Origin: a virus
Length of the DNA stretch: 64,000 nt
IMG/VR virus record: IMGVR_UViG_3300041583_000345
Location: 57,931 to 121,930 of that record
Direction: 5' to 3' (one strand)
The position numbers and the translations under genes were made by a program. Under the pieces are notes generated by a model. That model made no database searches, had not been told where the DNA came from, and saw only the letters and a list, made by a program, of their open reading frames with translations. Positions 2,836-43,712 of the stretch are shown here, one piece after another. Numbering within the stretch: the first letter of the stretch is position 1; the number at the start of each line of letters is the position of its first letter.

Positions 2836-4173
2836 TTATAGTAATTTCTGTAGCGTTTCTGATGTTAAGTTATACTTAGGTTTAGCGGCTTCTGCTAATA
2901 GATCATCTAAGTCTGTTTTACCTTTAAATGATATATGTCCGTTATTGGTATCCATGTTTATGTCGTAAGTCATTCCGTCCATACCGTATCTGTTTTTCAT
3001 AATATGAATTCGACCAGTTCCTAAAACTTTATCTTCTTTCATCCTAGATAAGGATAAACATACATCGGCTACCATCATCTTATCATACGATCCTGCAGCT
3101 TTATCTCCTTCTATTATTGAATCTTTAGCTCCCATACGGTTAACCTGTGAAGGTGTTAAGATTGGTATTTTTAATTCTTTGGCTAATCCTTTAGTTGCGA
3201 TAAAAACATCATCGATTTCATCTTTTCTTTCGGCGAATTTACCTCTTGAAGGTGCTCTTAGGTAATCAACATAATCAATGATTACTAAGTCTGGTTTATG
3301 CCCCATATCGGTACATTTCTGTATATGAGACTTAATAGTATTTACTGTTGCTCCCTTTGGTGGGTATTCTTTAACAATTAACTTCCCCTTTAGTGCGTCT
3401 ACTGTCTTCTGAACTTCTTTTCTATGTTTGTTTACTTCATCTATAGAATATCCGGTAAAATAACAGTCAAATCGTTTCCCAACATAGTCTTCTCCTAATT
3501 CTAAGGTGTAATATATAACATTATACCCTAGTTTTACAGCGTGGGCTCCAGCTGCTACCATAGTCCATGATTTTCCACCTCCTGGGTTACCAAACATGAT
3601 AATTAAATCTCCTGGTCCGAATCCTCCCTGTATAGCATCATTCATTATAGGCCAAGGTGTTGGGATAGTAGGCCTGTAGTCAACTCTGTATCGAGTCTCT
3701 ACATCTTTATTGTATTCATGGCCAATGTTTTTATCCATCCCAGCTTTCATTGCCTTTTCAACTTGATTTCTAATCCCGTCGAAATCTCCATCTTTTAAAA
3801 GGTCTGCTGATGCTAAAATTGCAGCTTTCATCTCTTGGTTCTTACAAAAGCCTAAAAACTCTTCTTGAATATACTCTAAATCCTCTTGAGATGCTGCGTA
3901 AGAGTTTCTAAGCTCTTCTTTTAACGCTACGACTAGTACTTCATTCTCTACCTTCTGAAGTTCTACTTTCAGAACATCCATTGTTACTACTGTATGGTAT
4001 TTATCAAAGTACCTGATAATTTCATTTATAATCCACTTATGTGAATCCGCATCGAAATAGACATCTGTCAATACATCTCTGGTATTCTGTAGGAATGTTT
4101 TGTCTGTTAGTAGTGATCCTAGTACTTTTAATTGGAAGCCTTTTCCGTATTGCTGAAGTGATTTAAGTGTCAT
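2836..4173 (-). CDS. 41: Replicative DNA helicase, DnaB type (T4 gp41)
   Basis: Hexameric 5'-3' helicase that unwinds the fork and partners the primase (gp61, encoded at 51.7-52.7 kb). Residues 1-150 form the helical N-terminal domain. The RecA-like motor starts near 170, with Walker A GNPGGGKS at 195-202, an acidic Walker B in LVIIDYVDYL near 295, and a motif like TPSQVNRMGA. The length of 445 is typical for gp41 (T4: 475). It is the last gene of a tight run gp32-uvsX-exonuclease-gp41, with only 8 nt separating it from the exonuclease gene. gp41 is a known split-intein site in marine phages, but this copy is uninterrupted. Confidence 0.95.
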   Translation of the reverse strand: MTLKSLQQYGKGFQLKVLGSLLTDKTFLQNTRDVLTDVYFDADSHKWIINEIIRYFDKYHTVVTMDVLKVELQKVENEVLVVALKEELRNSYAASQEDLEYIQEEFLGFCKNQEMKAAILASADLLKDGDFDGIRNQVEKAMKAGMDKNIGHEYNKDVETRYRVDYRPTIPTPWPIMNDAIQGGFGPGDLIIMFGNPGGGKSWTMVAAGAHAVKLGYNVIYYTLELGEDYVGKRFDCYFTGYSIDEVNKHRKEVQKTVDALKGKLIVKEYPPKGATVNTIKSHIQKCTDMGHKPDLVIIDYVDYLRAPSRGKFAERKDEIDDVFIATKGLAKELKIPILTPSQVNRMGAKDSIIEGDKAAGSYDKMMVADVCLSLSRMKEDKVLGTGRIHIMKNRYGMDGMTYDINMDTNNGHISFKGKTDLDDLLAEAAKPKYNLTSETLQKLL

Positions 4174-36444: not shown

Positions 36445-37605
36445 TTATAGAAGCCAGGTGATATCCTCATCCCCGTAGGCTGTCTTTATAATATATGGAT
36501 TTTCTCTCTGATTTCCAACTGAAGACATAACTACTCTATTCTGAGTGTTTAGATTACTAAAAGAGGACATTTGTGCTCTGGTTAGGTCCATTCCCTGTTG
36601 TCTTAGTCTTAATGCAGTATCTCGTACATACAATGCAGTAGCACATGATATAATTAAATCGTCATTGTAATTTGTTTGTGCTTGGGGCTTTCCGTTTTTC
36701 CAAACAAATACTCTCATCTCCCCCATTGTACGTTTAGATTGTATTATTACAGATCTCTCCCTAATGTACTCAGTCATCTTAGCGATCACTAAAGGTCGTG
36801 TTTTCATAGACATTGTAAAGCCTGGTACTAATTTATCTCTTTCATATTTAGACATATACGATTCTACTGTCTCCATATTACCTGTTGAACTGTAATATAA
36901 GTTTCTATATTCACGTTCCATTACCTGTTCTATAGTAGCCCACCCAATATTGGCATTCTCTATTACAAGAAGTGCTTCATTATATTCTGTTGCTATACCT
37001 ACAAGAACATTACCAAAATCTTTGGGTGATACTTTGCCCTTGTATTCCCCTACTTGGGTACAAGTTTCTACATCAAATATGTGAAATGCAGAATAATCGG
37101 CAGAGTCTCCTCTAGAGACATCCGCTACAACTATATAGTCTTTAGTGTAGTCTGGTGATTCCCAAATCCATAAATTACTATCTACCCCTCTTTTTTCGAC
37201 AGGGTCTCTTTGATAAGTCTGTTCGTAAAATAAAAGATCATCTGGTTCAAATACTGTATCTCCAGAAGCTAAGAAATCACAGTTATGGGATACGAGTTTG
37301 TCAGCAATGAATAGATGCTTAGTGCCTACGTCTACTGGGTCGTATAATATGAAGTCTCCTTCTATCTTTTCAATGGATACTACTGTTACATCTTTCTGTA
37401 GAATATCCCCCGGTTTTATGTCTTTAGCAAGAACTTCTAGTCCGTCAACTATAAACCTATGTTCTAAAGAAGACTGTATCTCTACACTGTTGGAAAGTAT
37501 AAAATGTATAACTTCTGATTTAGATGTTTTCCTAATAGCAGAGAAAGGTTTATAGCCGTCTGGGGTCATTAGCTCGTACCTTGTGTTCTTTCTAATTTCT
37601 ATCAT
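36445..37605 (-). CDS. 17: Terminase large subunit, C-terminal half, fused to C-terminal split intein (gp17-C)
   Basis: A 386-residue protein in two parts. Residues 1-108 are the C-terminal intein fragment, ending DKLVSHN. Residue 109 (Cys) starts the C-extein CDFLASGDTVFEPDD, which is the gp17 nuclease half: IVVADVSRGDSADYSAF (metal-binding Asp), VIENANIGWATIEQV and TNYNDDLIISCATAL. The half must be joined in trans to the ATPase half (38347-39195) to make a working packaging motor. The ATG overlaps the end of the endonuclease gene by 14 nt. Joined sequence QECD-CDFLASG reads like an uninterrupted gp17. Confidence 0.93.
   Translation of the reverse strand: MIEIRKNTRYELMTPDGYKPFSAIRKTSKSEVIHFILSNSVEIQSSLEHRFIVDGLEVLAKDIKPGDILQKDVTVVSIEKIEGDFILYDPVDVGTKHLFIADKLVSHNCDFLASGDTVFEPDDLLFYEQTYQRDPVEKRGVDSNLWIWESPDYTKDYIVVADVSRGDSADYSAFHIFDVETCTQVGEYKGKVSPKDFGNVLVGIATEYNEALLVIENANIGWATIEQVMEREYRNLYYSSTGNMETVESYMSKYERDKLVPGFTMSMKTRPLVIAKMTEYIRERSVIIQSKRTMGEMRVFVWKNGKPQAQTNYNDDLIISCATALYVRDTALRLRQQGMDLTRAQMSSFSNLNTQNRVVMSSVGNQRENPYIIKTAYGDEDITWLL
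37282..37605 (-). other. C-terminal split-intein fragment (IntC, 108 residues)
   Basis: An intein fragment with the expected end blocks: EHRFIVDGLEVLAKDIKPGD (block F/B-like hydrophobic strands), FLYDPVDV, and a final VSHN before Cys+1. Its large size, with a very short partner, is the reverse of typical split inteins and matches the atypically split terminase intein AceL-TerL as I remember it (about 25 + 104 residues). Confidence 0.9.
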
Positions 37606-38329
37606 ACTTCACCCTTATAAATGTACATCCTAATTTCTTTTCTATTTGCTTCTGTCTAGTAGTATCTTTACTACATAATTCACCGGTCTTATCAAAGTGG
37701 TGTTTTTCATCTACTTCTAAAGCTACATTACTTATAGGGTCGTATCCGTCTAAAAAGTATCCAAGGTGCTCTACAAAGAATTCTCCTCCATTTTCAGCAT
37801 GCATAAACTTATACCCGTTCTTTCTTCCGTACTCCTCTATTACCTTAATAGAGTCTATATTATACCTAGGAGCTAATTGACCTTTACATTTTGTTAAGTA
37901 CGCTAAAGTAGATACTCTCATCTTCCGTTTAGTTTCTTCAGTATGTGGTTTACCTAATTGATTTCTCTTAGGGTCTGGGCATTTTCTACAGTACTGCGAC
38001 CAATTATACTTTCTACCACACTCACATTTTAATTTACTAATATCTCTATCTAGCTCTGTGATAAACTTAAGTCTATGTGTTAGGTTGTAAGCTGTTTTGT
38101 ATGTCTTCTGGTTTGTAAATAACTCCTCTAATTCAGTAGTATGTTCAAGTACTGATTTATATAGTTTAGGGTGCTCTTTAATGAAAGTTCTATTTTTAGC
38201 TTTACCTATGTACCTCTTATATAGCTCTCCTTCAAGTAGTAGATCTCTTGTCTCTATATATGAATAGAGCTCAATAGCTTCTAACTCTTCTTTTAGTTTC
38301 TCCCAATACACCTTAGTATGATTTATCAC
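37592..38329 (-). CDS. Homing endonuclease inside the terminase gene break
   Basis: A 245-residue protein starting at GTG (38329). It has a zinc-ribbon-like KCECGRKYNWSQYCRKC near the middle, a NUMOD3-like GKPHTEETKRKM, and a C-terminal Vsr/EDxHD-type core: FFVEHLGYFLDGYDP, then VALEVDEKHHFDK and CTFIRVKY. It lies between the two halves of the terminase, the arrangement called a fractured gene, where a free-standing endonuclease separates the split intein halves. A TATTTATA box lies 16 nt before its start and overlaps the stop of the N-half, so it has its own likely promoter. It presumably cuts intein-less gp17 genes. Confidence 0.88.
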   Translation of the reverse strand: MINHTKVYWEKLKEELEAIELYSYIETRDLLLEGELYKRYIGKAKNRTFIKEHPKLYKSVLEHTTELEELFTNQKTYKTAYNLTHRLKFITELDRDISKLKCECGRKYNWSQYCRKCPDPKRNQLGKPHTEETKRKMRVSTLAYLTKCKGQLAPRYNIDSIKVIEEYGRKNGYKFMHAENGGEFFVEHLGYFLDGYDPISNVALEVDEKHHFDKTGELCSKDTTRQKQIEKKLGCTFIRVKYDRN

Positions 38330-38345
38330 AAGAATGCCTTTCTTT

Positions 38346-38353
38346 ATTATAAA
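38346..38353 (-). promoter_or_regulatory. Candidate promoter overlapping the end of the terminase N-half
   Basis: The coding strand reads CTATTTATAATAAAG, of which TAT-TTA-TAA are the last codons and stop of the N-half. It is 16 nt from the endonuclease GTG. Confidence 0.5.
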
Positions 38354-39195
38354 TAGTCGCCTTCTTGCGATATAAGTGAATAAAGTTCTTCTAATGTTAC
38401 ATTCTGTTCTATATTAGTATGCTTGTCAAGTACCTGTACTCTACTCTCCCCCCATAGACAGTCACACTCCTGCCCTGCCATGCGTGGTCCTAAATCACGG
38501 TCCTGCATATCTCTCCAATCTTGAGTTCTTTCAGGGTGCACACTCCATGGCAGTCTCACAGGCATAAAGGAATTTTCTCCTGTTTCTGCTTTTTCCCATG
38601 TCTGGTGGAACCAATTCCCAATACCGTTAGGTGTTGATAGAGCCATACATTGTCCACCTGTTGCTAGTGTTTGTTGTGCTGCTGCAAAGGTTTCATCAAT
38701 ATTGTCTATAAAAGCGGCTTCATCTATTAATAGTAGAGATACCGCTTCTGATCTAGCTGCATCAGCATTCGATGATTTAGCCTGTATCTTAGAGCCGTTT
38801 TTTAGTCTTAGTGATAGTTTGTTCTTTTCAACAGATGGTAGCTTTAGCCACCTTGGTAGTTCGTCATACATAAAGATAACCTTTGTTACAAGGTTTCTAG
38901 CTGTGGCCTGTGTGGTTGCTAGTGCGAGTATGTTTTTATCCCTATGAAACAACATTAACCAGAGGCTGTATGCTGATGCTAGTGTGGATATGCCTAATTG
39001 TCTAGATTTAAGTGTTATAATAAACTGCTCATCTCTAAATAAATGTAAAACTTTCTCTTGAAATGGGTATAGATTAAAGAGTATCCTACCTCTCTGTGGG
39101 TGTTGTATATGGCAGTACTTTCTCATAAAGTACGCCGGATCCTTTGCACACTTGATGTACTCCTGTGCAATTATTTTTTTTATGTCTTGACTCAT
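38347..39195 (-). CDS. 17: Terminase large subunit, N-terminal ATPase half, fused to N-terminal split intein (gp17-N)
   Basis: A 282-residue protein. Residues 1-245 are the gp17 packaging ATPase: Walker A SRQLGIST at 64-71, Walker B AVSLLLIDEA at 151-160, and motif III-like LSTPNGIGN. At D245/C246 the sequence switches to an intein: CLWGESRVQVLD begins the 37-residue N-fragment, which stops at 38347. The nuclease half is encoded separately at 36445-37605 and begins with the matching Cys. Trans-splicing of the two is needed for packaging. Confidence 0.93.
   Translation of the reverse strand: MSQDIKKIIAQEYIKCAKDPAYFMRKYCHIQHPQRGRILFNLYPFQEKVLHLFRDEQFIITLKSRQLGISTLASAYSLWLMLFHRDKNILALATTQATARNLVTKVIFMYDELPRWLKLPSVEKNKLSLRLKNGSKIQAKSSNADAARSEAVSLLLIDEAAFIDNIDETFAAAQQTLATGGQCMALSTPNGIGNWFHQTWEKAETGENSFMPVRLPWSVHPERTQDWRDMQDRDLGPRMAGQECDCLWGESRVQVLDKHTNIEQNVTLEELYSLISQEGDYL
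38350..38460 (-). other. N-terminal split-intein fragment (IntN, 37 residues)
   Basis: Block A is present: Cys1 followed by LWGESRVQVLD, then LEELYSLI. With only 37 residues it is too short for a standard intein N-half, so the split point is atypical. The partner is at 37282-37605. Confidence 0.88.
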
Positions 39196-39211: not shown

Positions 39212-40333
39212 CTACTTTATTAATGCAAGTCTAGGAGTATAATCAGAAACTGTTGTTACTATCTTTATAGAGTTACCAATCTCCTGCTCAAGGTCTTGAC
39301 TATTACTTATTATTTTATAGTCTAGGTCACTACTAATAAACATTATAGGATGTGCTATTTCTTCTATGTATGCTTTGGCAAGATCTTTTGCTATTCTTAA
39401 ATTAAATTGCGATAAGGAATTTAGGTCCGCAGTTTCTACCTTTACTACCCCTGGGCCGTATATATCATCTAAAAGTTCCTTAAGGTTTATGTAAAATTGG
39501 TTTTCCTTATTTTTATCAGATGTTTGTTTAAGAACGTTTAAATAGTGGAATAACCTTCCCGTCCATCCTGCATTTTTAAGCGGTATTAATACCTTAGCAT
39601 CTTCTTCCGGGAAGAATTTTAATATGTTTGAAACTATTTCACCTATACTATCTCCTCTTCCTGAAATCTTTTTTGGAGCTAGTATTGCACCTGTTAATGT
39701 TCCTTTCTTATTTAAAGAAGAAGCTTTTAATTCTAATGTACCACTAGCTGTTAATACGTCCCCCTTTGGTGCACTTTTAGTATCACTAAGAAGGCAAACT
39801 AAGGCTATCTCTCCTCTTCCAACTCCTTTTTGATTTGAACCCGGGGAGAAGCTAATTAATTTATTAATATGTTTTGAATCTATACCGGTTATATTTGCTA
39901 ACTCGCTTGAGAGGTTTCCTGATTTAGAAAGTTTATCGAATGTATTATTACTATTATTAAGCGAGGAAATTATATTGTTTTCTATGTTATTTTTATCTGC
40001 ATACCCAACAATTAAAAGAGTTTGTTCTTCCCCTAACCCTTTTTTAGTTAATGCATTAATTAGAGAAGTAGTATACCCTTTCCCGGTTTTCTTAATAACT
40101 GAATAAAGCTTAGCAATCTGTTCTGGGGAAAACTCTTGTTCTTTCGAATTTAAAAGTTTAATTATATCCTGGACTGATTGGTTGGTTTGTTGAGTTTCTT
40201 GTTTTACTGTATCTGTAAGTTTAACTCCAAACATATCTTCAAATAAAATTATATCCTCTTGATTATTAATATCAGGATATCCTTTATTAGTTCTATAAGA
40301 CCATTCTTGTATAATTTTATCTATAAGATTCAT
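39212..40333 (-). CDS. Unknown protein with possible PD-(D/E)XK nuclease core
   Basis: The 373-residue protein starts NLIDKIIQEWSYRTNKGYPDI, a helical start common in marine phage proteins of unknown role. The middle has GRGEIALVCLLSD, then KGDVLTASGTLELKASS. The E...D...E-x-K spacing resembles a PD-(D/E)XK nuclease site. No other motif is seen. It lies directly upstream of the terminase N-half and follows a tagged acidic protein. The nuclease idea is an inference from one motif. Confidence 0.6.
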   Translation of the reverse strand: MNLIDKIIQEWSYRTNKGYPDINNQEDIILFEDMFGVKLTDTVKQETQQTNQSVQDIIKLLNSKEQEFSPEQIAKLYSVIKKTGKGYTTSLINALTKKGLGEEQTLLIVGYADKNNIENNIISSLNNSNNTFDKLSKSGNLSSELANITGIDSKHINKLISFSPGSNQKGVGRGEIALVCLLSDTKSAPKGDVLTASGTLELKASSLNKKGTLTGAILAPKKISGRGDSIGEIVSNILKFFPEEDAKVLIPLKNAGWTGRLFHYLNVLKQTSDKNKENQFYINLKELLDDIYGPGVVKVETADLNSLSQFNLRIAKDLAKAYIEEIAHPIMFISSDLDYKIISNSQDLEQEIGNSIKIVTTVSDYTPRLALIK

Positions 40334-40342
40334 TTATTGTTA

Positions 40343-41002
40343 TTATGCTTCTGGTTCTTCTCCGTCTTCAAAATCAATAGGCTCATCGGATAAATCCTCT
40401 CCTCCTCCTTCATCACCACCTTCTGCTCCTCCGGTATCATCTGCTGCAAAGTCATCTTCTCCTCCTGTTGCTCCTCCTTCTCCTCCAGGAAATTCCCCAC
40501 CGCCCCCAGATGCGTCTGCTACATCTGATCCTGATACTGAGTCTTCCCCTGCGCCTTTCATTGGTGATTCTGAGTAGAGTATTGCAAGTTTGTCTAGAGC
40601 TTGTTGGTAGTCTGAAATATTGGAAAGGGTGTATCGTTTACCTAGAATTTTAGCAACAAAGGTTTTACCCATCCATTTTAACTCGTAGTCTTGACCGTTC
40701 TTGAGGTTAATTCTAAAAGCGGTCGGTCTTGGAGAGATCCAATCTATTGTATCTACAAATTCTAAAAAGTCTTCTGTTTGTAATTTTACAATAGCCTGTT
40801 TCAAGGTTGGAAACTTAGCTAAAATAGTATCTGTTGCATCTTCAAGTACAGTCTCTTTTGGTGCATCCATATCAGGTTCTTCTTCAGGTGTTGGCTTTTC
40901 TTCAGTTTCTTCTTCAGCTTCCTCTAGCTCATCTAATAAACCTTCTAATAAAACTTCTTGGTATGCTTCTAGTATAATATTCTTTAAATCGCTTTTTTTC
41001 AT
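40343..41002 (-). CDS. Acidic, Gly-rich protein with capsid-targeting-like leader
   Basis: A 219-residue protein. It begins MKKSDLKNIILEAYQEVLLE (tag-like, with I-L-E and L-L-E sites), then an acidic stretch to residue 50, a central folded part (FRINLKNGQDYELKWMGKTF), and a disordered Gly/Asp tail (GGGGEFPGGEGG and so on). It resembles head-core proteins in charge. It overlaps neither neighbour. I do not recognise the family. Confidence 0.6.
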   Translation of the reverse strand: MKKSDLKNIILEAYQEVLLEGLLDELEEAEEETEEKPTPEEEPDMDAPKETVLEDATDTILAKFPTLKQAIVKLQTEDFLEFVDTIDWISPRPTAFRINLKNGQDYELKWMGKTFVAKILGKRYTLSNISDYQQALDKLAILYSESPMKGAGEDSVSGSDVADASGGGGEFPGGEGGATGGEDDFAADDTGGAEGGDEGGGEDLSDEPIDFEDGEEPEA

Positions 41003-41003
41003 A

Positions 41004-43712
41004 TTACTTAGTTCTACAATGATCTTTACCTTTTAAAAATGGAGTTTTACATTTAGACCCCTTAACGTGTACCCGGCCACATTTTCCACAGCAGGTTCCT
41101 TTTTCTTCGTCAATATGGTGACCCTTATCTGTTGCCCAATCATCCATATCATCGTTGACATCCTCATCTTCCGTAATGGATAAAAGGTTAAGCTTTTTAG
41201 TTTCGTCTTCTGCTCTTTTCTTAGTTGCAAAATCTGTTATAATTTTATCTCCTTTCCATACTTGGTATGTATTATTAGATTTCGAAAACTTTACTTTGTG
41301 TTTTCCCTCTTCTATTGATTTTTTAATTACACCACCTTTATTATATATGTTTGTAGCTTTAGTATCGCCTGTTCCTTTATTGTAGGATACACTATATTGA
41401 GGTCTATCCATTATGTCTGTTCCGGCTTTTGTGATAACACCTGGGTGGCCTAAGTGTTTTACTTTGTCTCCTACTTTAAACTCTAACCCTGAAGCTTCTT
41501 CTAGGTCTTCGCTTACTATATTACCTTTGGTAGTTTCAGATACCTCTTTAGATAGTTTTTTATACTTAGATAGTAAATTAGCTATTTTGTCATCTTTCCC
41601 AACCATTGTATTAATTTGACTAGGTTCTAATTTTCTACTATAGTATTTTTCTATTTGATTTTTGAGGTCTTTAAGTTGAGAGGGTTCGTTTACTTCTATT
41701 TTACGTTCCTCAAGATATTCATTTTCGGCACCAACAGCATTATATGCTTCTATACCAAATCTTTTTATTACTTCTTGTTGAGATTTCCCAGAATCGATCA
41801 TTCGCTTTGCTCCCTCAATATCTTTTCTAAATTGTGTTTTTTTAGGTTTGGATGGGCGACTGGCTGCTTTGTCAGCATACTTTTGTTGTGCTGGTGTTAT
41901 TTCATTTACACCATCATAGTTTTGTTTTCTTAATACTTGCGTAACAGCGTAGACAGCATCCTGTAATGAATAATCGTATCTATCTGCTAATTTTCTTATA
42001 AATCCATTTACTAGTCTATCTAATTCGGGGTTTACATTTTCTTTTATATTAGAGGAGGAGGGGAGTATTGAATTAGTACCTCTAACTATTAGTCTTAGTT
42101 TACCATTTTTTATAACTACAGTTTTTGTAAATAAGGAATCTGACTTAACATGGTCCACCTTATAATCTGTGCCTTTAATAAATGAGTTTTTATCTTTACC
42201 ATTATATTTTACAGTATCTCCGGGTTTTACCGTATTATAAAATTTGATTTGTTCTTTTTGGTCTAGCCCTTCATTTTCTTTTACTAAATGGGACATCCAT
42301 GATGAATCTATTTTATACCCATCCAGCCAGTCTTTTAGTTCAGCAGGGGAATCTCTCTTAATGGTAGAAGTAGCATTTTGATCATATATACTAGCATCCT
42401 TCTTTGTTATATCCATTTCCCATTTATTCCCACTTTTTTGAATATCGTATTGCTTACCAGTATTACTGTCTTTATATAATGTTGAGTTACCTTCATTTAA
42501 CCCATCATAGTTTTGTTTTCTTAATACTTGCGTAACAGCGTAGACAGCATCCTGTAGTGAGTAGTCGTACCTATCTGCTAATTTTCTTATAAATCCATTT
42601 ACTAGTCTACCTAATTCGGGGTTTACATTTTCTTTTACTATTTCATCAATAACATCAATAACTTCATCTGTATCATACCCACTTGAATCTGCCCAATCTT
42701 GGAACCTATCGAAGTCTCTTTTTGGTAAAACATAATAAGTATCCCTACCGTCTTTTTTATAACCTAAGTTTCTAGAAAGACTTTCATCAGATAAGAATTT
42801 ATCATCTAAATATCCATCGTCTAATGTGAACGTAATGGTATTACTATCTTTATTAGTATTTTTATTTTTATTCTTTTCGGTTGCTATTAAAGCTTGTATT
42901 TTCTCTATGGTGGTTTTTTCAGGATGGTTTTTTAGTCTATCAGCTTGTTGTGCATCAGAAAATTCATTATCTGTCATTTCACTTGTTGGTGTAGGGTGAT
43001 ATTGTCTTAGGTTTGGCTTTACCTCTATACCGTGTTTAGTACCTCCTTTTAAAAAGGCTGCTCTACGGCTTAATTTATTGGCGGTTGATACTGCCCTATT
43101 TGATGTTTTAATCTTTTTTTCTTGCATTTTGGAAGAAAAATGTTTGGTAAGCTCATTTGCTATTACATCAACATGTATTACCGGTTCTCCTGATGGTTTA
43201 ATACCTATTTCACCAACTGCTTTATTATATGAAAAATCTACTAAGTGTAATTCTTCTCCCTCTATATAAAAAGAAAAGTTATCTGTCCGATTATCTTTAT
43301 ATTCTACGTGTAGATTAAAACTACCCTCTTCTATGTTTATAGCTTTCATATGAGATAATTCATCTCCGGCTGCTATAAGGGCTTTGGCTAAAGATTTACC
43401 TACCCCTCTTGCAATTTGTTTAGTTTCTTCTACCGAAAATCTAGCTTCTCCTTTTGCTTCTTTAGTTAACTTAACGTTGATCCCTTTTTTGGCTAGTTTT
43501 TCTGCTTCTATTTCACTATCAGTAGATATTGTACCAGCTTCTTGTTCAGCTAAAATTTTTAATTCACTATCTAATGCTTCTTTAATAGACTGTAGCTGGG
43601 ATATGGTTTCTTGTACATTTATTCCAGGTACATTTTGATATGTTCCGCTCTGTAGTGAAGTTAGTGCGGACTGAACGTTTGTTAACCTGTCGTTTAGTTC
43701 TTGATATGTCAT
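41004..43712 (-). CDS. Large modular protein with a near-identical internal repeat
   Basis: A 902-residue protein that looks like joined modules. Residues 1-210 are helical. Two 49-residue units (about 359-407 and 556-604; NPELGRLVNGFIRKLADRY...AVTQVLRKQNYDG) are almost identical. Between them lies DTVKYNGKDKNSFIKGTDYK. Later come a KOW-like VGDKVKHLGHPGVIT segment and a Cys-rich C-terminus (CCGKCGRVHVKGSKC). Several L-N-E and similar sites border the modules, so cleavage by the prohead protease is conceivable. Function is unknown. The gene lies upstream of a tagged acidic protein in the accessory block. Confidence 0.65.
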   Translation of the reverse strand: MTYQELNDRLTNVQSALTSLQSGTYQNVPGINVQETISQLQSIKEALDSELKILAEQEAGTISTDSEIEAEKLAKKGINVKLTKEAKGEARFSVEETKQIARGVGKSLAKALIAAGDELSHMKAINIEEGSFNLHVEYKDNRTDNFSFYIEGEELHLVDFSYNKAVGEIGIKPSGEPVIHVDVIANELTKHFSSKMQEKKIKTSNRAVSTANKLSRRAAFLKGGTKHGIEVKPNLRQYHPTPTSEMTDNEFSDAQQADRLKNHPEKTTIEKIQALIATEKNKNKNTNKDSNTITFTLDDGYLDDKFLSDESLSRNLGYKKDGRDTYYVLPKRDFDRFQDWADSSGYDTDEVIDVIDEIVKENVNPELGRLVNGFIRKLADRYDYSLQDAVYAVTQVLRKQNYDGLNEGNSTLYKDSNTGKQYDIQKSGNKWEMDITKKDASIYDQNATSTIKRDSPAELKDWLDGYKIDSSWMSHLVKENEGLDQKEQIKFYNTVKPGDTVKYNGKDKNSFIKGTDYKVDHVKSDSLFTKTVVIKNGKLRLIVRGTNSILPSSSNIKENVNPELDRLVNGFIRKLADRYDYSLQDAVYAVTQVLRKQNYDGVNEITPAQQKYADKAASRPSKPKKTQFRKDIEGAKRMIDSGKSQQEVIKRFGIEAYNAVGAENEYLEERKIEVNEPSQLKDLKNQIEKYYSRKLEPSQINTMVGKDDKIANLLSKYKKLSKEVSETTKGNIVSEDLEEASGLEFKVGDKVKHLGHPGVITKAGTDIMDRPQYSVSYNKGTGDTKATNIYNKGGVIKKSIEEGKHKVKFSKSNNTYQVWKGDKIITDFATKKRAEDETKKLNLLSITEDEDVNDDMDDWATDKGHHIDEEKGTCCGKCGRVHVKGSKCKTPFLKGKDHCRTK
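41901..42046 (-). repeat. Near-identical 146-bp repeat, C-terminal copy
   Basis: Matches 42492-42637 at about 138 of 146 positions. Most differences are silent. Confidence 0.9.
42492..42637 (-). repeat. Near-identical 146-bp repeat, N-terminal copy
   Basis: Direct repeat of 41901-42046, about 446 bp apart within the same reading frame. Confidence 0.9.

What the first reader, a model, noticed from the sequence alone, without database searches (positions are those of the whole stretch)
36445..39195. Terminase gene broken by an atypically split intein with an endonuclease gene in the gap
Seen: the ATPase half ends QECD then Cys246 with a 37-residue intein start. The nuclease half begins with a 108-residue intein end (VSHN) then Cys. 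A separate endonuclease gene lies between them. The joined exteins (QECD-CDFLASG) read as intact gp17. Known: split inteins with the break filled by a free-standing Vsr-like endonuclease are the fractured genes of metagenomes, and AceL-TerL (about 25 + 104 residues) is the atypically split terminase intein I recall. Here the same kind of element appears in a full T4-like context, with an unusual 37/108 split. The phage cannot package DNA unless the two products splice in trans.
Basis: partly seen in the sequence, partly recalled or inferred. Interest (0 to 1): 0.92.

Follow-up and report, generated by a model that had tools for sequence, protein, structure and literature searches.

The report
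Split-intein terminase with endonuclease in gap
A phage's DNA-packaging gene is split in two by a self-splicing mobile element that carries its own DNA-cutting gene; the element is real and probably mobile, but its kind was already known, and the useful extra is a near-identical natural phage that lacks it.

Summary
On the minus strand, terL is broken into an ATPase half (39195-38347, 245 aa plus a 37-aa IntN) and a nuclease half (37605-36445, 108-aa IntC plus 278 aa). A 245-aa endonuclease ORF (38329-37592) lies between them. IntC is a HINT fold whose best match, by sequence and structure, is the solved consensus "Cat" intein built from AceL-TerL and GOS-TerL. A 99.5-99.7% identical contig (L040) carries the uninterrupted 523-aa TerL (QECD-CDFLASG) and lacks exactly the 1179-bp element, so the joined product matches an existing natural protein. 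The three-ORF arrangement recurs down to about 70% DNA identity, with purifying selection on both intein halves and on the nuclease. A 37-aa IntN is the published size for GOS-TerL. Split terL inteins at this site occur in sequenced T4-like phages, and PX29 is annotated that way in GenBank. This is a new member of a known kind. The added value is a natural occupied/empty pair, evidence that the cassette moves separately from its flanks, and the finding that the same intein break houses several unrelated endonuclease families. Trans-splicing and homing are inferred, not shown.

The parts
38461..39195 (-). terL N-extein (ATPase half), 245 aa, ends QECD
   Evidence: Pfam Terminase_6N 2.1e-10; PHROG terminase large subunit 2.9e-44
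38350..38460 (-). IntN, 37 aa, Cys1; ORF stop at 38347-38349
   Evidence: Starts exactly where the empty allele L040 lacks sequence; conserved in L021-L024, L159
37592..38329 (-). Endonuclease ORF (GTG start, 245 aa): helical N-terminal domain, CxCG...CxxC motif, NUMOD3-like GKPHTEETKRKM, C-terminal Vsr-like PD-(D/E)XK-type nuclease domain; overlaps the IntC start by 14 nt
37282..37605 (-). IntC, 108 aa, B-block-like SLEH, F-block, terminal VSHN
   Evidence: Pfam Intein_splicing 2.5e-5, below the curated cut-off; 6dsl CatC; AF2 pLDDT 90.5 and Foldseek to 6dsl TM 0.88
36448..37281 (-). terL C-extein (nuclease half), 278 aa, starts with Cys+1 (CDFLASG); ORF stop at 36445-36447
   Evidence: 72% identical to Flavobacterium phage immuto TerL; PHROG terminase 8.5e-13
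37282..38460 (-). Whole inserted element (1179 bp) absent from the near-identical allele L040
34519..36414 (-). Portal protein (T4 gp20-like), downstream neighbour
   Evidence: PHROG portal 2.3e-63

Best explanation
This is a mobile, atypically split class-1 intein of the AceL/GOS-TerL family, inserted at the boundary between the ATPase and nuclease domains of a phage TerL, with a free-standing homing endonuclease occupying the break. Shown by sequence: the three ORFs, the intact splice-junction residues (Cys1, SLEH, His107-Asn108, Cys+1), the predicted HINT fold of IntC, the precise empty site, and purifying selection. Inferred: the two halves are translated separately, the short IntN docks into IntC, protein trans-splicing joins QECD to CDFLASG to give the 523-aa TerL, and the endonuclease cuts intein-free terL alleles in co-infecting phages so that repair copies IntN-endonuclease-IntC as one cassette.
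For: Coordinates and residues. IntC to Cat intein 6dsl: sequence E 6.8e-11, profile 1.3e-32 with gp41-1 and VidaL next, structure TM 0.88, rmsd 1.6. Empty allele L040: flanks 99.5-99.7% identical, single 523-aa TerL ORF, 1179-bp element absent. Second occupied allele L039: the element differs by 27/1179 but the exteins by 5/1588 (Fisher p=1.7e-6), the differing tract runs from 38461 to 37381, close to the element ends, and genes upstream of terL are 3.6-32% diverged. Three-ORF arrangement in L021-L024, L123, L159. dN/dS between L023 and L024: endonuclease 0.12, IntN 0.20, IntC 0.06. No other terL in G000. The site falls at T4-type residue about 353, before catalytic D401.
Against: No splicing or cleavage was measured. 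The -1 residue is Asp, whereas the Cat-like relatives L125 and L131 have Glu. The endonuclease has no above-threshold family match and only a weak structural match. The record is a fragment, so a second terL elsewhere cannot be excluded. Synonymous divergence within the element is uneven (IntC dS 0.014, not higher than in the exteins), so the cassette-mobility test rests mainly on IntN and the endonuclease.
Confidence: 0.9

Rival explanations
1. The two halves are not spliced and work as a non-covalent two-subunit terminase (gene in pieces, as reported for a phage ribonucleotide reductase split by a homing endonuclease gene).
For: The break lies between the ATPase and nuclease domains, so each half could fold alone; a split reductase that keeps function is known (work cited in PMC3322345 and PMC10448857).
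Against: Both halves keep all intein catalytic residues and intein sequence evolves under constraint (dN/dS 0.06-0.20), which a non-splicing tail would not need; IntC is predicted to fold as HINT.
Confidence: 0.05
2. Decayed element: the intein no longer splices and the record comes from a defective or minority genome.
For: All records are metagenomic; intein-free alleles dominate close relatives (2 occupied of 80 loci).
Against: ORFs are intact in at least six records, with purifying selection, and no motif is lost.
Confidence: 0.04
3. Assembly artefact joining two genomes.
For: Metagenome assembly.
Against: The same arrangement occurs in independent records from other IMG samples at 96-100% and at 44-60% IntC identity.
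Confidence: 0.01

Closest known systems
AceL-TerL / GOS-TerL atypically split inteins and the consensus Cat intein (PDB 6dsl)
   Same: Same host gene, short IntN and long IntC, Cys+1, HINT fold; best sequence and structure match. Sizes AceL 25/104, GOS 37/115, Cat 30/104 (PMC11766414) bracket 37/108.
   Different: IntC is only about 36% identical to CatC; the N-extein ends QECD; the gap holds a Vsr-like rather than a GIY-YIG endonuclease (the closest Cat-like relatives L125 and L131 carry GIY-YIG).
Split terL inteins of sequenced phages: Aeromonas PX29 (17A/17B), Vibrio VP-1, EniLVp02, Providencia PSTRCR_127
   Same: Same insertion position (QE[HYC]x|C.F.G), IntN about 33-37 aa where it is a separate tail, IntC about 106-111 aa; PX29 is annotated 'N-intein' and 'GIY-YIG endonuclease and C-intein'.
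   Different: GIY-YIG nucleases (free, or fused to IntN or IntC) or none, instead of a Vsr-like ORF.
Fractured genes (Dassa 2009, known to me from citations and memory; paper not held)
   Same: Essential phage gene broken by a split intein with a free-standing endonuclease in the break.
   Different: No essential difference that I could test; here there is additionally a near-identical empty allele.
EDxHD / Vsr-like homing endonucleases (I-Bth0305I)
   Same: C-terminal nuclease motif Y-x-D-G-Y-D...N..LExDExHHF...D..R plus a NUMOD-like segment; the family is also common as free-standing phage HEGs.
   Different: I-Bth0305I itself was not recovered by profile or fold search.

Membership tests
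Atypically split TerL intein (AceL/GOS/Cat) | HINT fold with class-1 residues Cys/Ser1, B-block His, terminal His-Asn, Cys+1 | tested here: met
Atypically split TerL intein (AceL/GOS/Cat) | Short IntN (about 25-40 aa) and long IntC (about 95-117 aa) as separate ORFs | tested here: met
   37/108; range in relatives; published 25/104 and 37/115
Atypically split TerL intein (AceL/GOS/Cat) | Homology to the Cat/AceL sequences | tested here: met
   6dsl E 6.8e-11; profile 1.3e-32
Atypically split TerL intein (AceL/GOS/Cat) | Protein trans-splicing activity | not testable with these tools
   needs expression
Fractured gene (split intein plus endonuclease in the break) | Free-standing endonuclease ORF between the intein halves | tested here: met
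   37592-38329
Fractured gene (split intein plus endonuclease in the break) | Intact exteins in intein-free relatives | tested here: met
   L040 and 77 further intein-free loci among 80
EDxHD / Vsr-like homing endonuclease | Vsr-like catalytic core motif | tested here: inconclusive
   Invariant D69, E80, H86, R100 and nearly invariant E83 and D97; DUF559 1.5e-5 in five members and PvuRts1I-like_N in three; Foldseek 1vsr E 0.79, AbaSI E 0.04
EDxHD / Vsr-like homing endonuclease | Cleavage of the intein-free allele at or near the insertion site | not testable with these tools
   needs biochemistry

The most novel reading that the evidence does not exclude
One fixed break in the terL intein acts as a shared docking place for homing endonucleases. 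Vsr-like, GIY-YIG, HNH and DUF7487-type genes (and sometimes none) have replaced one another there, and the cassette is currently spreading in a natural phage population in which occupied and empty alleles coexist at over 99.5% flank identity.
Probability: 0.55. Interest if true: 0.5.

Novelty: new member of a known kind. Interest (0 to 1): 0.33.

Why it matters
The class (atypically split TerL inteins, fractured genes) is known and used in protein engineering. This case adds a natural occupied/empty pair of almost identical phages, which makes homing of a fractured-gene cassette directly testable with a defined target (the L040 junction). It also suggests that the endonuclease is an exchangeable module of a conserved split intein, and it supplies a new candidate trans-splicing pair with a native -1 Asp.

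Tried and rejected
Unusual split size: rejected (GOS-TerL 37/115; relatives 28-40/94-117). First example in a T4-like genome: rejected (PX29 and others). A second terL in the record: none found (the Pfam model misses the known gene too, so the protein searches are the informative ones). Other members of this intein family or of this endonuclease family elsewhere in the record: none. Bacterial genomes: no relative of IntC. PDB profile search for the endonuclease: only GAL4-like and PvuRts1I sub-threshold matches. PHROGs has no family for the window's endonuclease. Paper searches for this exact element: none found. Sample provenance from IMG numbers: not resolved.

Full report
What is there. On the minus strand, three ORFs stand in a row: terL-N (39195-38347), an endonuclease ORF (38329-37592, GTG start) and terL-C (37605-36445). 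terL-N ends QECD followed by a Cys and 36 more residues. terL-C begins with 108 residues ending VSHN, followed by CDFLASG. The end of the endonuclease ORF overlaps the IntC start by 14 nt. The N half matches Terminase_6N (2.1e-10) and PHROG terminase (2.9e-44); the C half matches a terminase PHROG (8.5e-13) and Flavobacterium phage immuto TerL at 72%. Downstream is a T4 gp20-type portal and further on a gp23-type capsid protein (gp names from general knowledge of these PHROGs). The record is a 121.9-kb IMG/VR fragment with no other terL.

It is an intein. IntC alone finds the Cat consensus atypically split intein (6dsl, E 6.8e-11) and, as a 25-member profile, 6dsl at 1.3e-32 followed by gp41-1 and VidaL. 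The AlphaFold model (pLDDT 90.5) matches 6dsl with TM 0.88, rmsd 1.6. T14, P15, G17, F21, H49 and N108 are invariant and H107 nearly so across 25 relatives. Cat is the consensus of GOS-TerL and AceL-TerL, two TerL inteins with measured trans-splicing rates (PMC11766414).

The empty site. Contig L040 (3300005914_000476) matches the window at 99.5-99.7% on both sides of the element and reads ...CAG GAG TGT GAC | TGT GAT TTC... as one 523-aa TerL. The missing stretch is exactly 37282-38460, 1179 bp. This gives the splice junctions from nature: the predicted spliced product has the length and architecture of an existing TerL and near-identical sequence. Of the 80 best terL-C relatives in IMG/VR, 78 are intein-free and 2 are occupied.

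Mobility. A second occupied phage (L039) is more than 99% identical to the window in the exteins and the portal gene but 3.6-32% different upstream of terL. Inside terL its exteins differ from the window at 5/1588 positions and its element at 27/1179 (Fisher p=1.7e-6), and the differing tract runs from 38461 to 37381, that is, it starts at the element's edge and ends 100 bases inside its other edge. The simplest reading is that the cassette has a history separate from its flanks, as homing predicts. The caveat is that IntC synonymous divergence is not raised. Another hint of transfer: L158 has a C-extein only 44% like the window's but an IntC 55% like it.

Constraint. The three-ORF layout persists in L021, L022, L023, L024, L159 and L123 (and partly L158, whose contig is cut) with IntC 42-60% identical. 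Between L023 and L024, where synonymous sites are not saturated, dN/dS is 0.20 (IntN), 0.12 (endonuclease), 0.06 (IntC) and 0.04-0.06 (exteins). All three parts are maintained.

The endonuclease. Its C-terminal domain belongs to a widespread phage family found mostly as free-standing genes, many with NUMOD3-like repeats, with a core pattern D...E.DE.HHF...D..R. Five relatives hit DUF559 (best 1.5e-5), three hit PvuRts1I-like_N and eight hit NUMOD3. Foldseek gives only weak matches, among them AbaSI, PvuRts1I and Vsr, all Vsr-like PD-(D/E)XK folds by my own knowledge. So Vsr-like is likely, and EDxHD membership is plausible but not proven.

How it works. Inference from the above and from what is published on GOS-, AceL- and Cat-TerL: the two halves are made separately, IntN docks on IntC, and a class-1 reaction joins the exteins. 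The insertion corresponds to about residue 353 of a T4-type gp17, ahead of catalytic D401, that is, near the boundary between ATPase and nuclease domains (domain roles from general knowledge of gp17). The endonuclease would cut intein-free alleles.

What is not new. PX29 genes 17A/17B are annotated with N-intein, GIY-YIG and C-intein in GenBank; VP-1, 1.244.A, EniLVp02 and PSTRCR_127 have split inteins at the same site; Yersinia TG1 and Escherichia HY03 have another at the Walker B site (after residue 256), with a TnsA-like nuclease in the gap in TG1; Campylobacter CP21 has several inteins in terL, and the terL of IBB_35 was published as interrupted by an intein and an 'intron' enclosing a homing endonuclease. 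GOS-TerL has a 37-aa IntN.

What is modestly new. At this one site the gap holds Vsr-like (10 loci here), GIY-YIG, HNH or DUF7487 genes, or no endonuclease. On an IntC tree the window's group of eight is a supported clade with Vsr-like genes (SH-aLRT 95), while the four endonuclease classes need at least six changes over the tree; many deeper branches are weak. The intein break looks like a stable slot into which different nucleases are exchanged. I did not find this stated in the papers I could read, but the key papers (Dassa 2009, Thiel 2014, Bachmann and Mootz) are not held or were not read, so I claim no priority.

Noticed in passing
L134 and L140 (IMG/VR loci): terL appears broken by two split inteins, each gap with its own endonuclease ORF, so that TerL would be assembled from three polypeptides.
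   Followed up: partly
window 38350-38370 (IntN tail); L021-L024, L159: The IntN tail QE(G/C)DYL resembles the extein junction QECDC (exact QECD in L023/L024), at protein level with synonymous codon differences; unexplained, possibly chance or a relic of target sequence.
   Followed up: partly
L123:1405-2274 and 3119-3964: Two Vsr-like/NUMOD3 endonuclease genes around one terL: one in the intein gap and one directly upstream of terL-N.
   Followed up: no
L003 (Campylobacter phage CP21): terL carries an uninterrupted intein near the Walker A motif, a split intein, and a further mini-intein at the Walker B site.
   Followed up: no
L009, L012 (Yersinia TG1, Escherichia HY03): Split intein directly after the Walker B glutamate (residue 256) of gp17; in TG1 a TnsA/endonuclease-I-like nuclease lies in the gap.
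   Followed up: partly
window 39212-41004 and upstream compared with L039: Sharp recombination boundary just upstream of terL: 3.6-32% divergence upstream, about 0.3% from terL into the portal gene.
   Followed up: partly
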